A stretch of DNA of 64,000 bases from contig NZ_CP051151.1 of the NCBI RefSeq assembly GCF_013745115.1, forward strand, positions 310,001 through 374,000. The letters run 5' to 3'. A program made the position numbers and the translations under genes. Below are positions 9,796-60,240 of the stretch, one piece after another. This DNA is from Hujiaoplasma nucleasis. GTDB lineage: Bacteria; Bacillota_I; Bacilli_A; Izemoplasmatales; Hujiaoplasmataceae. Numbering within the stretch: the stretch's first letter is position 1; every line of letters starts with the position of its first letter. The notes below the pieces were generated by a model, which worked only from the letters and a program-made list of their open reading frames with translations, was not told the origin of the DNA and ran no database searches.

Positions 9796-9903
9796 GAGCT
9801 AGCTATACAAAAATCAAGTAAAAATTATAAATAATTAAAATTATGATATTTGAACATACTTAAAAAAGGTTAAAGAACCCTAAGTTAAATAATGGGTGAT
9901 TAA

Positions 9904-11078
9904 TTATAAGAGATCGTTATAAAAAGTATCTGTTTTAAGAATTTTGTAAATAGAATGAACCATGTTTTTGGCTATAGCGAAAATGATTGTTGAGTGATGT
10001 TTATTGCCTTTAGTCATCATATGAATGTATTTGCGTTTAAACTTATTATCTCTAGTTTTAGGACTAACACAAGCGATCCTAGCGGCACTATAGATGGCAG
10101 TTCGCAAATATTTACTACCACGTTTAGAAATTCGAGTACGTTTACGTTTGTATTTTCCGGATTCATGAACAATAGGTTCAATACCGAAAAGAGATGTATA
10201 TTTGTGTTTGTCAGTGAACCTGCTAATATCGCCTGTTTCGCCTAGAATAGTCGCTCCATTAATAGGACCGATACCTGGGACTGATAATATTTTTGGATAA
10301 AGAGTCATATGTTGTGAAATAAGTTTCTTTAGTATTTCATTTTGAGAATTAAAATGAATGATATTAGAGACACAAATTTAATTAGATAAGCATTTAAGTT
10401 ATTTGGATTTCCTATTGAGTTTTTCGCGATATATTTAATGAGTTTAGCTTGTTCAACGTGATTTGATCGACTACAATTCTTTGAGCTAAAGATTCAATAT
10501 GAAGACCTTTATAATCGCTTGGTAAGGGAAAATCATAAAGTAGATCTAAAGTCCATTTAGAGAAGGGTTTAAAGTGTTTAAGAAACTCAGGGAAGAACAT
10601 TTGAAGTAATCTTTTAAGTTCACCCTTAGCTTTAGTAATGATTTGATTATTAGAATTATAATCTCTAGATAATTGTTTTAACTCAACTAAATGATATAAT
10701 GGTGGTGTATAGGGATGGAGCCTATTCAGGTTATACATAAGGTGCCTACACACTGCTATAGCGTCAATTTTGTCAGTCTTGGTCATGCGAGGACGCCGAC
10801 TTACGACTGAGAGAAACTAACATTGGGTTAGTACAATATACAGTGTAGCCTTTTGATATTAGATAATCGCGCAGATTATTATGATAAATACCTGTGGCTT
10901 CCATTCCTATACGAATATCGTTAACCGACTTCGTACAGGATTGAATGACTGTATGAAGTTTTTTAAATCCAAAATGATTATTTTGAATAATAAAGTGATC
11001 ATAAATAATTTCACCCAAATCATTTATGATGATGATATCGTGTTTATCCATTGCGATATCAATGCCAATGAAAATCAA
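9904..11078 (-). pseudogene. IS110-family transposase, frameshifted
   Basis: Three fragments in different frames together form a full IS110 recombinase. The N-terminal part (about 11078-10790) has the RuvC-like DEDD motifs FIGIDIAMDKH and GMEATGIY. The middle (10786-10412) continues with TKTDKIDA. The C-terminal part (about 10360-9904) has the PGIGPINGATILGETGDISR region that carries the catalytic serine domain, then TRISKRGSKYLR. Frame changes near 10790-10800, near 10420 and near 10360 break the gene, so no active enzyme is expected. AAGGAGG at about 11087-11093 points to TTG 11078 as the original start. Confidence 0.88.
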
Positions 11079-11104
11079 AATAAAAACCTCCTTGTTTGAA
11101 ATAT

Positions 11105-11262
11105 TCAAACGTTATGAAACCACAAACAAATATAAATGTAACCTTGTAAATACACACTCGAAGTGTAACTAGCTAATTCACATTTATCATATAAGTTGTG
11201 GTTGTACCCTCCTAAACACACTCGAAGTGTAAGGAACGTATGACACACTCCACAACGTTTGT
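11105..11262 (-). ncRNA. Candidate IS110 bridge RNA (relic)
   Basis: On the transposase strand the region upstream of the gene folds into two similar loops. The first is closed by GTTGTGG/CCACAAC (11250-11256 with 11195-11201) and the second by ATAAATGT/ACATTTAT (11180-11187 with 11132-11139). Each contains the same 17-base copy with the hairpin ACACTTCGAGTGT (plus-strand copies at 11152-11168 and 11216-11232). Terminal segments CAAACGTT and AACGTTTG could close the whole. This is the target-loop and donor-loop layout of IS110 bridge RNAs. The extent is inferred from the -10 box at 11269-11274. Confidence 0.65.
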
Positions 11263-11366
11263 AACTTCATTATAGGAGATTAAATAAATTATTTAAATAC
11301 ATTTTATGAACAAAAGAGAAAGGAGAAGTATAGTTAAATTATCTTAATTTAATTATACAAGGACTT

Positions 11367-11858
11367 ATGAAGAAATGGATTGCTTTAATGGGTGCTTTAT
11401 TAGCCCTTGACCAAATCAGTAAATACTTGGTGGCTACTTATGAAGTAAGTCAACCTATTATTCAAGATTTTTTGCATATTACTTATGTTAGAAATTTAGG
11501 TATGGTATTTGGTTTCTTTCAAGGTATTACTGCTACCTATACAGTTTTACTTGCTATATTTGCTTTGATTGCTTTTTCCATATTTGCATATTTGTTTAGT
11601 AAAATTGATTTTTCAGATAAAAGAACTATTCTTTTATCTTTAGCTTTATCGCTCTTAATTGCTGGTACTTTAGGTAATGCTATTGATAGATTATTTCAAC
11701 CAGATCATGGAGTCATTGATTTTATAGACTTTAGGGGTTTAGGTGATTTATGGACCTATGTATTTAATTTTGCGGATGTTTATTTAAATGTAGGTTTGGT
11801 CTTGTTTTTTATAGATATATTCTTTTTAGAAAAGAAAAGGGTTGAAAGTCATGTCTGA
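11367..11858 (+). CDS. lspA: Lipoprotein signal peptidase II
   Basis: Membrane aspartyl protease that cleaves prolipoprotein signal peptides. The 163-residue protein has four membrane segments and the family blocks ALDQISKYL near the N-terminus, GTLGNAIDRL with VIDFIDF (about 104-122), and FNFADVYLNVG (about 135-145); the two catalytic aspartates are in the latter two. AAGGA at 11359-11363 precedes the ATG. Its upstream region was altered by the IS110-type insertion, so its present promoter is unclear. The end overlaps rluD, the usual lspA-rluD pair. Confidence 0.95.
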   Translation: MKKWIALMGALLALDQISKYLVATYEVSQPIIQDFLHITYVRNLGMVFGFFQGITATYTVLLAIFALIAFSIFAYLFSKIDFSDKRTILLSLALSLLIAGTLGNAIDRLFQPDHGVIDFIDFRGLGDLWTYVFNFADVYLNVGLVLFFIDIFFLEKKRVESHV

Positions 11859-28054: not shown

Positions 28055-28390
28055 AGTTAAGTCATTAGGTAATCGAGCGTGAAAACGTTAGGAAAGTCCA
28101 TGCTAGCACAAACTGAGATGTTTGTAGTGATTGTGCTAAACGAACAAATAAGTTTAGGCACCATTTGGTGACGGCGAAGAAAAGGATTAACGGCCTGAGT
28201 ATTCTTAAAGTGCCACAGTGACGAATCATAGAGAATATCTATGGGTGAAACGGGTAAACCCCTCAAGCTAGAAACCCAAATTTTGGTAGGGGCATGACTG
28301 TGCAAGAAATGAATTGACACAGTTGGCGGGAAACCGGAGATAAATGATTACCACGCTTTTTAGCGACAGAACATGGCTTATAAATGACTT
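28055..28390 (+). ncRNA. rnpB: RNase P RNA, bacterial B-type
   Basis: Catalytic RNA that removes tRNA 5' leaders. P1 is formed by AAGTCATT (28059-28066) and AATGACTT (28383-28390). Hallmarks are AGGAAAGTCCATGCT near the 5' end (P4 and CR-I), GGCGAAGAAAAGG in the middle, and ACAGAACATGGCTTAT at the 3' end, which pairs to form P4. The size of about 335 nt and the internal layout fit the Bacillus (B) class. It is followed by a strong terminator. Confidence 0.96.
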
Positions 28391-42690: not shown

Positions 42691-42695
42691 AATAT

Positions 42696-42734
42696 CCTCC
42701 TAGTTTTTTTTCGCAGGATGGTTTCGAACTGCGT
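42696..42734 (-). promoter_or_regulatory. preQ1-I riboswitch of queT
   Basis: Minus strand CGCAG-TTCGAAACCATC-CTGCG followed by an A-rich tail and ACTAGGAGG. The stem (42729-42733 with 42712-42716), the loop with TTC and CC, and the AAAAAACTA tail match the preQ1 class I aptamer. The AGGAGG SD lies at the pseudoknot end, so control is probably at translation initiation: ligand would hide the SD and lower uptake. Confidence 0.88.
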
Positions 42735-42747
42735 TATACGATATTTA

Positions 42748-51154: not shown

Positions 51155-51368
51155 ATATATACGATGATTAGGACAAGGAAGGTTTTGCCTTTAGAGAGCT
51201 TGTGGTTGGTGAAATCAAGCATTAAGACCTTTTATCACCTATGAGTATGATTAATGAATTTAGTAGTTAATCACGTGACCAGCGTTAATGGATTTGAGTG
51301 CTAGTGTAAACTAGAATTAAGGTGGTACCGCGTGAAAACGTCCTTTGTTTAAGGATGTTTTTTTTGTT
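51155..51368 (+). promoter_or_regulatory. T-box riboswitch of ileS (Ile specifier AUC)
   Basis: Leader with the AGAGAGC and GGTTGGTGAAATCAAGC elements of stem I, the specifier triplet ATC at 51234-51236 (followed by ACC and ATGAGTA), the T-box AAGGTGGTACCGCG (51319-51332), and a terminator AACGTCCTT/AAGGATGTT with a long T run (to 51366). Uncharged tRNA-Ile is expected to pair with the specifier and the T-box and to prevent termination. Confidence 0.93.
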
Positions 51369-59373: not shown

Positions 59374-60073
59374 TATTGCATGTAAATATGATGATTTAAT
59401 TGAACAAGATATCAAAAAAGCTAGTTTTCCATATGCTGGATATCACCATATACAAGATTTAATTTCAGATGATTTATTGAGTCAAAAGAAGAAATCAAAA
59501 GTGTTGGATATTGGGTGTGGAACTGGTAAATTGTATGAAAAAATAAATCCTAACTCATTTCACTTAACAGGCATAGATGCTTCAATAAAGATGTTGAATG
59601 AAGCTAAATGTAAATATCCTAAAGCTTCTTTTATTCATTATGATATCTTGAGAGGATTACCTAAGAGTCTCTATGGTCATAAATATGACTATATTATAGT
59701 TAATTATGTTTTTATGCACTATCCTTTTGCCACAACCATTGATTTAATTCATGTCTTATTGAATTATTTAGATAAGGGTGGGAAAATTATTATTGCTGGA
59801 TTACAATTTATTAACCCTTCTAGCAAACAAGAGTTTTTTATTAATCATCAAGATTATAAGGATTTAAACTTATATTTTCATATATACAGTCGTTATGTAA
59901 ATCAGGTTAGCCAACAATTGGCTTTAAGTTTTTTTGAAATTAATGATTACACAGGAATGATGATTATTGAAAATATCAATGATTTTACTTTACATTTAGA
60001 AGATCCTTTGGTAAAATACAAATCAAATACAGTGAAGTGGAGGAGTACTCACCCACAAAGATGTAGAGAGTAA
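59354..60073 (+). CDS. Class I SAM-dependent methyltransferase
   Basis: A 239-residue protein with a Rossmann methyltransferase core: motif I VLDIGCGTGKLYE (about 52-64), motif II GIDASIKMLNEA (about 73-84), then DYIIVNYVFMHY (motif IV, about 113-124) and GGKIIIAGL. The substrate is unknown; the group includes many small-molecule methyltransferases. AGGTGA precedes the ATG inside engB. The last codons overlap the start of a Val T-box leader (AGAGAG), and the T-box promoter lies within the reading frame. Confidence 0.82.
   Translation: MLVNYDDIACKYDDLIEQDIKKASFPYAGYHHIQDLISDDLLSQKKKSKVLDIGCGTGKLYEKINPNSFHLTGIDASIKMLNEAKCKYPKASFIHYDILRGLPKSLYGHKYDYIIVNYVFMHYPFATTIDLIHVLLNYLDKGGKIIIAGLQFINPSSKQEFFINHQDYKDLNLYFHIYSRYVNQVSQQLALSFFEINDYTGMMIIENINDFTLHLEDPLVKYKSNTVKWRSTHPQRCRE
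59989..60017 (+). promoter_or_regulatory. Promoter of the valS T-box leader, inside the methyltransferase gene
   Basis: TTTACA at 59989-59994 and TAAAAT at 60012-60017, spacer 17, with an extended TG at 60009-60010. Confidence 0.65.
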
Positions 60074-60240
60074 ACGGTTGGTGAAAGTTTATGTTTGTTG
60101 TGAGGAAGGTAGCCATGGAGTATTTCAGATGAAATAAGTAGTCTGAAACGTATATCTGCGTTAAAGATTTGAGTGCTAGTTTTCTAGAACTAAGGTGGTA
60201 CCACGGTGATTAATCGTCCTTTATTTAGGACGATTTTTTT
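60040..60240 (+). promoter_or_regulatory. T-box riboswitch of a Nudix-valS operon (Val specifier GUA)
   Basis: Contains AGAGAG and GGTTGGTGAAAG elements of stem I, specifier GTA at 60109-60111 followed by GCC and ATGGAGTA, the T-box AAGGTGGTACCACGG and a terminator AATCGTCC / GGACGATT followed by T residues. The specifier fits tRNA-Val and the downstream valS. The leader starts within the end of the methyltransferase gene. Confidence 0.92.

What the first reader, a model, noticed from the sequence alone, without database searches (positions are those of the whole stretch)
11105..11262. Bridge-RNA-like two-loop structure upstream of the IS110 transposase relic
On the transposase strand two stem-loops follow each other, GTTGTGG/CCACAAC and ATAAATGT/ACATTTAT. 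Each has at its tip an identical 17-base copy with hairpin ACACTTCGAGTGT (plus-strand 11152-11168 and 11216-11232), 64 bases apart. IS110-group elements are known to encode a bridge RNA with a target loop and a donor loop in exactly this position. The shared tip hairpin would be an unusual internal symmetry. The structure seems better preserved than the transposase.
Basis: partly seen in the sequence, partly recalled or inferred. Interest (0 to 1): 0.8.

Follow-up and report, generated by a model that had tools for sequence, protein, structure and literature searches.

The report
Jumping gene guided to ribosome-binding sites
The two hairpin loops are the guide RNA ("bridge RNA") of an IS110-type jumping gene; its target guide reads the ribosome-binding site just upstream of genes, and nearly all related elements checked sit at exactly such sites, which may let them spread without breaking genes.

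Summary
Window 11106-11264 (-) is the bridge RNA of an IS110-group element at 9797-11361, with three near-identical copies in this 1.81-Mb genome. The window copy's transposase is frameshifted but the copy at 1.263 Mb is intact: a young defective copy, not an old relic. Eight related RNAs support the fold (10 pairs changed on both sides; shuffles 2.7), and a covariance model finds the RNA at 17 further IS110 loci (E<0.01). The guides fit. Donor guide UAGCUAGUU matches donor TAGCTAG|CT, with compensatory guide/donor changes in relatives; target guide UUUAGGAG pairs 8/8 with the insertion site, fixed by uninterrupted sites in sister species. Joined ends form a TTGATT-17-TATAAT promoter. The matching tip hairpins are not unusual: tips resemble each other in most relatives. 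The recombination core is the AG inside AGGAGG, and 30 of 32 insertion sites lie 5-14 nt before a start codon of an ORF of at least 60 codons (controls 12%), antisense to the gene. IS900 is a precedent for such targets; I found no bridge-RNA explanation of it in the library searched.

The parts
9797..11361 (-). IS110-group element including both CT cores (copy A, defective transposase)
   Evidence: Three copies share it; boundaries fixed by uninterrupted lspA sites in sister species
9797..9798 (-). CT core at the right end (AG on the + strand)
   Evidence: Joining flanks here gives AAATTTAGGAGGACTTATG, the native sequence of L133
11360..11361 (-). CT core at the left end; on the + strand the AG of the lspA Shine-Dalgarno, 6 nt before ATG at 11367
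9799..9805 (-). Left donor half TAGCTAG
   Evidence: Matches the left donor guide; co-varies with it in relatives
11355..11359 (-). Right donor half TGTAT
   Evidence: Complementary to the right donor guide; sequence
9812..9817 (-). -35 box TTGATT of the promoter formed on circularisation
   Evidence: 17-bp spacing across the junction in 13 of 13 elements
11352..11357 (-). -10 box TATAAT of the junction promoter
11269..11297 (-). Possible internal promoter TTTAAA-17-TATAAT just before the RNA
   Evidence: Best consensus hit in the region, but hits are no more frequent than in shuffles; TATAAT conserved in relatives
11106..11264 (-). Bridge RNA, modelled extent
   Evidence: Covariance model hit, 190 bits (the model includes this sequence); covariation
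11250..11256 (-). Target-loop stem, 5' strand GTTGTGG (pairs with 11195-11201)
   Evidence: Conserved pairing in 8 RNAs, mostly invariant
11232..11240 (-). Left target guide TACGTTCCT
   Evidence: Left guide/target matches 113/168 against 79.5 permuted over 24 sites; weak for copy A itself
11218..11230 (-). Target-loop tip hairpin ACACTTCGAGTGT
   Evidence: Compensatory changes at 2 pairs
11209..11216 (-). Right target guide TTTAGGAG
   Evidence: 8/8 complementary to target CTCCTAAA of this copy
11195..11201 (-). Target-loop stem, 3' strand CCACAAC
11167..11175 (-). Left donor guide TAGCTAGTT
   Evidence: Pairs d1-d9 with one wobble; compensatory in L057, L020, L111, L108
11154..11166 (-). Donor-loop tip hairpin ACACTTCGAGTGT
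   Evidence: Compensatory changes at 2 pairs
11143..11151 (-). Right donor guide ATTTACAAG
   Evidence: Complementary to CTTGTAT in the discontiguous manner described for IS621 (sequence; PMC11208158)
10773..11108 (-). Transposase N-terminal fragment (DEDD domain)
   Evidence: PF01548
10412..10786 (-). Transposase middle fragment, frameshifted
   Evidence: PF01548
9904..10308 (-). Transposase C-terminal fragment
   Evidence: PF02371
11367..11858 (+). lspA, the gene whose ribosome-binding site was the target
   Evidence: ORF; homologues in sister species

Best explanation
The structure is the bridge RNA of an IS110-group insertion sequence. Mechanism by analogy with IS621: the element excises as a circle, which builds a promoter across its joined ends; the RNA is made from that promoter or an internal one; a recombinase dimer binds each loop. 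The donor loop pairs with the circle junction (TAGCTAG|CT|TGTAT). The target loop pairs with a chromosomal ribosome-binding site (UUUAGGAG on the right side, ..UUCCU on the left). Strands are exchanged at the CT core, which is the AG inside the gene's AGGAGG. The element lands immediately upstream of the gene's GGA-spacer-ATG, antisense to it, so neither neighbouring reading frame is broken. The mirrored tips are probably the part of each loop that the same recombinase surface recognises twice. Shown: fold, guide/donor and guide/target complementarity, insertion point, junction promoter sequence, preference for ribosome-binding sites. Inferred: transcription, recombinase binding, strand exchange, role of the tips. 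The window copy has no intact transposase and would need the intact copy at 1.263 Mb in trans.
For: Three copies define the element; uninterrupted site in sister species reproduces the joined flanks letter for letter. Covariation: 10 pairs changed on both sides against 2.7 shuffled, 0/500. Model built from this clade hits 17 other IS110 loci at E<0.01, upstream of the gene on its strand. Right target guide 77/108 non-core matches against 45.9 permuted; left donor guide 93/117 against 80.7; left target guide 113/168 against 79.5. Junction promoter with 17-bp spacer in 13/13 elements. Profile match to the solved IS621 and ISCro4 recombinases. Ribosome-binding-site insertion 30/32 against 12% control, 10/11 in three further families.
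Against: No expression data. The target-loop base stem is nearly invariant, so hardly tested by covariation, and is not in the single-sequence minimum-energy fold. Copy A's left target guide matches its site poorly (2 of 7 non-core positions). Within the window clade alone the guide/target permutation tests are only marginal (p 0.02-0.11). Related sequences are not independent, so permutation p values are optimistic.
Confidence: 0.92

Rival explanations
1. The ribosome-binding-site pattern is survivorship, not programming: insertions elsewhere are lost because they break genes and only those before a start codon persist.
For: Insertions inside genes would be selected against; only surviving sites are seen.
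Against: Guides match their own sites better than others' sites. The core is always the AG of a Shine-Dalgarno-like sequence in one orientation, whereas survivorship would allow any intergenic site and both orientations.
Confidence: 0.1
2. The locus is a dead remnant: the RNA is neither made nor used, and its intact fold only reflects recent copying.
For: Transposase of copies A and B frameshifted; RNA identical but for one base among copies.
Against: An intact copy C exists in the same genome, so the RNA of any copy could be used in trans; the fold is kept by compensatory change across species. The frameshifts could be assembly errors in repeats.
Confidence: 0.25
3. The identical tips are a recent internal duplication or gene conversion rather than a functional symmetry.
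For: Exact identity over 17 nt here; own tips slightly more alike than tips of other elements (0.89 against 0.84, p 0.046; sister groups 0.65 against 0.55, p 1e-4).
Against: The resemblance is old and shared: L057 has identical 15-nt tips, L025 and L114 near-identical ones with a different motif, and tips keep pairing by compensatory change. A common protein contact is simpler, though conversion may add to it.
Confidence: 0.25
4. The hairpins are a leader or attenuator controlling transposase expression, not a guide RNA.
For: They lie directly upstream of the gene on the same strand; IS110-family ISPpu9 is regulated by small RNAs (PMC8450116).
Against: No terminator-like site; guide/donor and guide/target complementarity has no place in this reading.
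Confidence: 0.03

Closest known systems
IS621 bridge RNA and recombinase (IS110 group; PMC11208160, PMC11208158)
   Same: RNA in the left end, target loop then donor loop, left guides pair the bottom strand and right guides the top strand, CT core, junction promoter, donor right half CTTGTAT, pseudo-symmetric loops.
   Different: Right target guide matches over up to 8 nt (IS621: 4); both tips equal (in IS621 the target tip is shorter and does not touch RuvC); an outer stem encloses both loops, and the separate 5' stem-loop was not identified here; targets are ribosome-binding sites, not REP elements.
IS900 of Mycobacterium avium paratuberculosis (IS110 family; PMC8141618)
   Same: Published target motif CATGNNNNNNTCTCCTT is a Shine-Dalgarno plus start codon on the opposite strand, as here.
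   Different: Actinobacterial element; its bridge RNA and guides were not examined here; no antisense ORF like hed noted in this element.
seekRNA of IS1111/IS110 elements (PMC11187229)
   Same: Non-coding-region RNA, upstream of the gene in the IS110 type, that selects the target by short top- and bottom-strand matches; natural reprogramming among relatives.
   Different: IS1111 elements carry the RNA downstream of the transposase gene; not so here.

Membership tests
IS110-group bridge RNA | DEDD RuvC-like plus Transposase_20 recombinase | tested here: met
   PF01548 and PF02371; profile match to IS621 and ISCro4 structures
IS110-group bridge RNA | Structured RNA in the long left end, upstream of the gene | tested here: met
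   11106-11264 (-); left end longer than right end (sequence)
IS110-group bridge RNA | Two stem-loops with internal loops, kept by covariation | tested here: met
   target-loop base stem itself nearly invariant
IS110-group bridge RNA | Second loop complementary to both strands of the circular junction | tested here: met
   Left guide 9 nt with compensatory changes; right guide AUUUACAAG against CTTGTAT (sequence)
IS110-group bridge RNA | First loop complementary to both strands of the target | tested here: met
   Right guide 8/8 in copy A; left guide significant over 24 sites, weak for copy A
IS110-group bridge RNA | CT core shared by target and donor, no other duplication | tested here: met
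   Uninterrupted site in sister species
IS110-group bridge RNA | Promoter reconstituted across the joined ends | tested here: met
   TTGATT-17-TATAAT, sequence only
IS110-group bridge RNA | Separate 5' stem-loop before the target loop | tested here: inconclusive
   A left-end palindrome at 11328-11358 overlaps the junction -10 box; 5' end of the RNA unknown
IS110-group bridge RNA | RNA is transcribed, binds the recombinase and directs recombination | not testable with these tools
   Needs RNA-seq and assays
IS1111 group | RNA in a long right end, long subterminal inverted repeats | tested here: not met
   RNA is in the left end; right end about 100 nt
IS900-like targeting | Insertion at Shine-Dalgarno/start codon in one orientation | tested here: met
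   30/32 and 10/11 sites; membership of the IS900 lineage itself not tested

The most novel reading that the evidence does not exclude
A lineage of IS110 elements in Bacilli carries bridge RNAs whose target guides imitate the ribosome's own reading of the Shine-Dalgarno sequence (left guide like the 16S tail ..UCACCU or ..CUCCU, right guide like AGGAG). Such an element has very many target sites per genome, all next to genes and not inside them. Guide letters drift between elements while staying on translation-start sites, so a specific guide RNA becomes a generalist. The same logic would explain the older IS900 observation.
Probability: 0.72. Interest if true: 0.65.

Novelty: new member of a known kind. 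Interest (0 to 1): 0.52.

Why it matters
Bridge RNAs are being developed as programmable recombinases. This clade is a natural series of guide, donor and target triplets with compensatory changes, useful for deducing pairing rules and as compact orthologues (RNA of about 160 nt, protein of about 400 aa). Ribosome-binding-site targeting would explain why some IS110 elements sit just before start codons, and is a simple model of how a guide-RNA element can use an abundant, gene-sparing site. The mirrored tips pose a testable structural question: in IS621 the short target-loop tip is proposed to prevent target-target recombination, and here both tips are the same.

Tried and rejected
First boundary guess (core in the last TCCT shared by both ends) was rejected: it gave a target 3 bases short, a shifted donor guide and a 20-bp junction spacer; the uninterrupted site in sister species showed that the right-end core lies 3 bases earlier, after which the guides fell into the IS621 register. 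The single-sequence minimum-energy fold was set aside for the comparative one. Rfam has no matching family. IMG/VR contigs gave only distant transposases, not used. The first left-guide registration was off by one in six elements and was corrected. The test for concerted evolution of the tips gave a small effect only. G112 copies could not be bounded by the automatic method. L038 starts at a contig end and was left out of the site count. IS900's own bridge RNA and IS621's full sequence were not fetched.

Full report
What was checked. The two 17-base copies are exact, at 11152-11168 and 11216-11232, 64 apart. The region folds far better than shuffled sequence (z -5.39).

The element. The transposase frames between 9904 and 11108 (-) are fragments with PF01548 and PF02371. 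The window is part of a single-contig 1.81-Mb genome in which the same element occurs three times: here (A), at 672 kb (B) and at 1263 kb (C), differing by one base in the RNA and a few short indels in the gene. C has a complete transposase frame; A and B are frameshifted, by decay or by long-read errors left in repeats. Close relatives are in MAGs named Izimaplasma, Bacillota and Bacillales. A profile of the clade's proteins matches the solved IS621 and ISCro4 recombinases.

The RNA. Eight RNAs (two from this genome, six relatives) were aligned. The structure tested has an outer stem, a target-loop stem with a bulged A, a two-part donor-loop stem and the two tips. It is 93.7% paired, with 10 pairs changed on both sides (2.7 in shuffles, 0 of 500 as high), and it collapses when partners are slid. 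Donor stem and tips carry most of the covariation; the target-loop base stem is nearly invariant and so only weakly tested. A covariance model from these sequences hit the window once, at 11106-11264 (-), and 21 of 35 other loci, 17 of them at E<0.01, on the transposase strand upstream of the gene; four of the 17 are copies in one genome. No Rfam family matches.

Donor pairing. With the core at CT, the joined ends read TAGCTAG|CT|TGTAT. The left donor guide UAGCUAGUU pairs d1-d9 with one wobble, close to the d1-d8 register given for IS621 (PMC11208158). Relatives change donor and guide together: L057 AGATGG/AGAUGG, L020 and L111 AGCTGG/AGCUGG, L108 AGTTAG/AGUUAG, a sister group AGTTGG/AGUUGG. 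Exact matches are 93/117 against 80.7 when guides are dealt to other elements. The right donor guide AUUUACAAG fits the discontiguous pairing described for IS621. The junction forms TTGATT-17-TATAAT in this element and a promoter with a 17-bp spacer in all 13 elements examined. This supports the boundary, since the wrong boundary tried first gave a spacer of 20.

Target pairing. Sister species have the lspA site uninterrupted: L133 reads CAAATTTAGGAGGACTT-ATG; L134 and L135 are alike. The element sits at AAATTTAGG-AG-GACTT-ATG. The right target guide UUUAGGAG pairs with CTCCTAAA 8/8 in copy A and 7/8 in B and C; L057's UUAAGGAG pairs 8/8 with CTCCTTAA. Over 18 sites the six non-core positions match 77/108 against 45.9 permuted. 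The left target guide matches 113/168 non-core positions over 24 sites against 79.5. Copy A's own left-guide match is poor.

What it targets. The gene lies on the other strand and begins a few bases beyond the core. Of 32 usable sites, 30 have ATG, GTG or TTG 5-14 nt from the core followed by at least 60 open codons; control AGG positions on the same loci give 12% and AG positions 8% (binomial p 2e-25). By my reading of the translations the genes hit include lspA, atpC, and likely rpiB, plsX, asnS and yidD. In three further multi-copy families, whose left ends were found by comparing copies rather than by motif, 10 of 11 sites agree; in G241 the Shine-Dalgarno-like sequence is on the right-end side, so the core lies between it and the start codon. 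The genome's presumed 16S tail reads GGATCACCTCCTTTC; several left guides (..UAUCACCU..CUCCU) read like it. IS900's published motif CATGNNNNNNTCTCCTT (PMC8141618) is the same kind of site, so the target preference has a precedent; an earlier report on IS900 and translation initiation signals is recalled from memory and is cited by that paper. I found no paper in the held library that ties this to a bridge-RNA guide; subscription journals and preprints were not searched.

The tips. In this element and in L057 the two tips are identical. Across 20 elements own tips score 0.73, against 0.34 for shuffled letters and 0.49 for other elements' tips. The motif differs between groups (ACACUUCGAGUGU here, ACAGC..GACUGGU in sisters) but is mirrored within most. 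This fits the pseudo-symmetric loops and doubly recognised A and G bases described for IS621 (PMC11208158). It differs in that IS621's target tip is reported shorter than its donor tip and does not reach RuvC.

Verdict. As a bridge RNA this is a new member of a known kind. The added value is the evidence that its guide is written for ribosome-binding sites and that this holds across a lineage.

Noticed in passing
window 11328-11358: Left-end palindrome (GTATAATTAAATTA AGA TAATTTAACTATAC on the minus strand) next to the junction; kept as a palindrome with changed letters in L058, L020, L057 and others. Read from the + strand it would be a hairpin directly before the lspA Shine-Dalgarno.
   Followed up: no
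window 9904-10786; L002, L003: The copies differ mostly by short indels (CCCC to CC, a lost C, A/T-run lengths) that break the transposase in A and B but not in C: decay, or long-read errors in repeats.
   Followed up: partly
L108, L115, L118, L120 (G138) and L109, L116, L119 (G217): Copies of one element in a genome differ in the target guide (L120 against L108; L116 against L109), possible natural reprogramming events.
   Followed up: partly
L166-L169 (G241): An IS110 family whose core lies between the Shine-Dalgarno-like sequence and the start codon rather than inside the Shine-Dalgarno.
   Followed up: partly
L009 (G009), L010, L012, L015 (G006): Short matches to the left end without a full element, some at contig ends: remnants or assembly breaks.
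   Followed up: no
window 28061-28385, 51155-51348, 60023-60224, 42694-42738: Rfam matches: RNase P class B, two T-box leaders, a preQ1 riboswitch.
   Followed up: no
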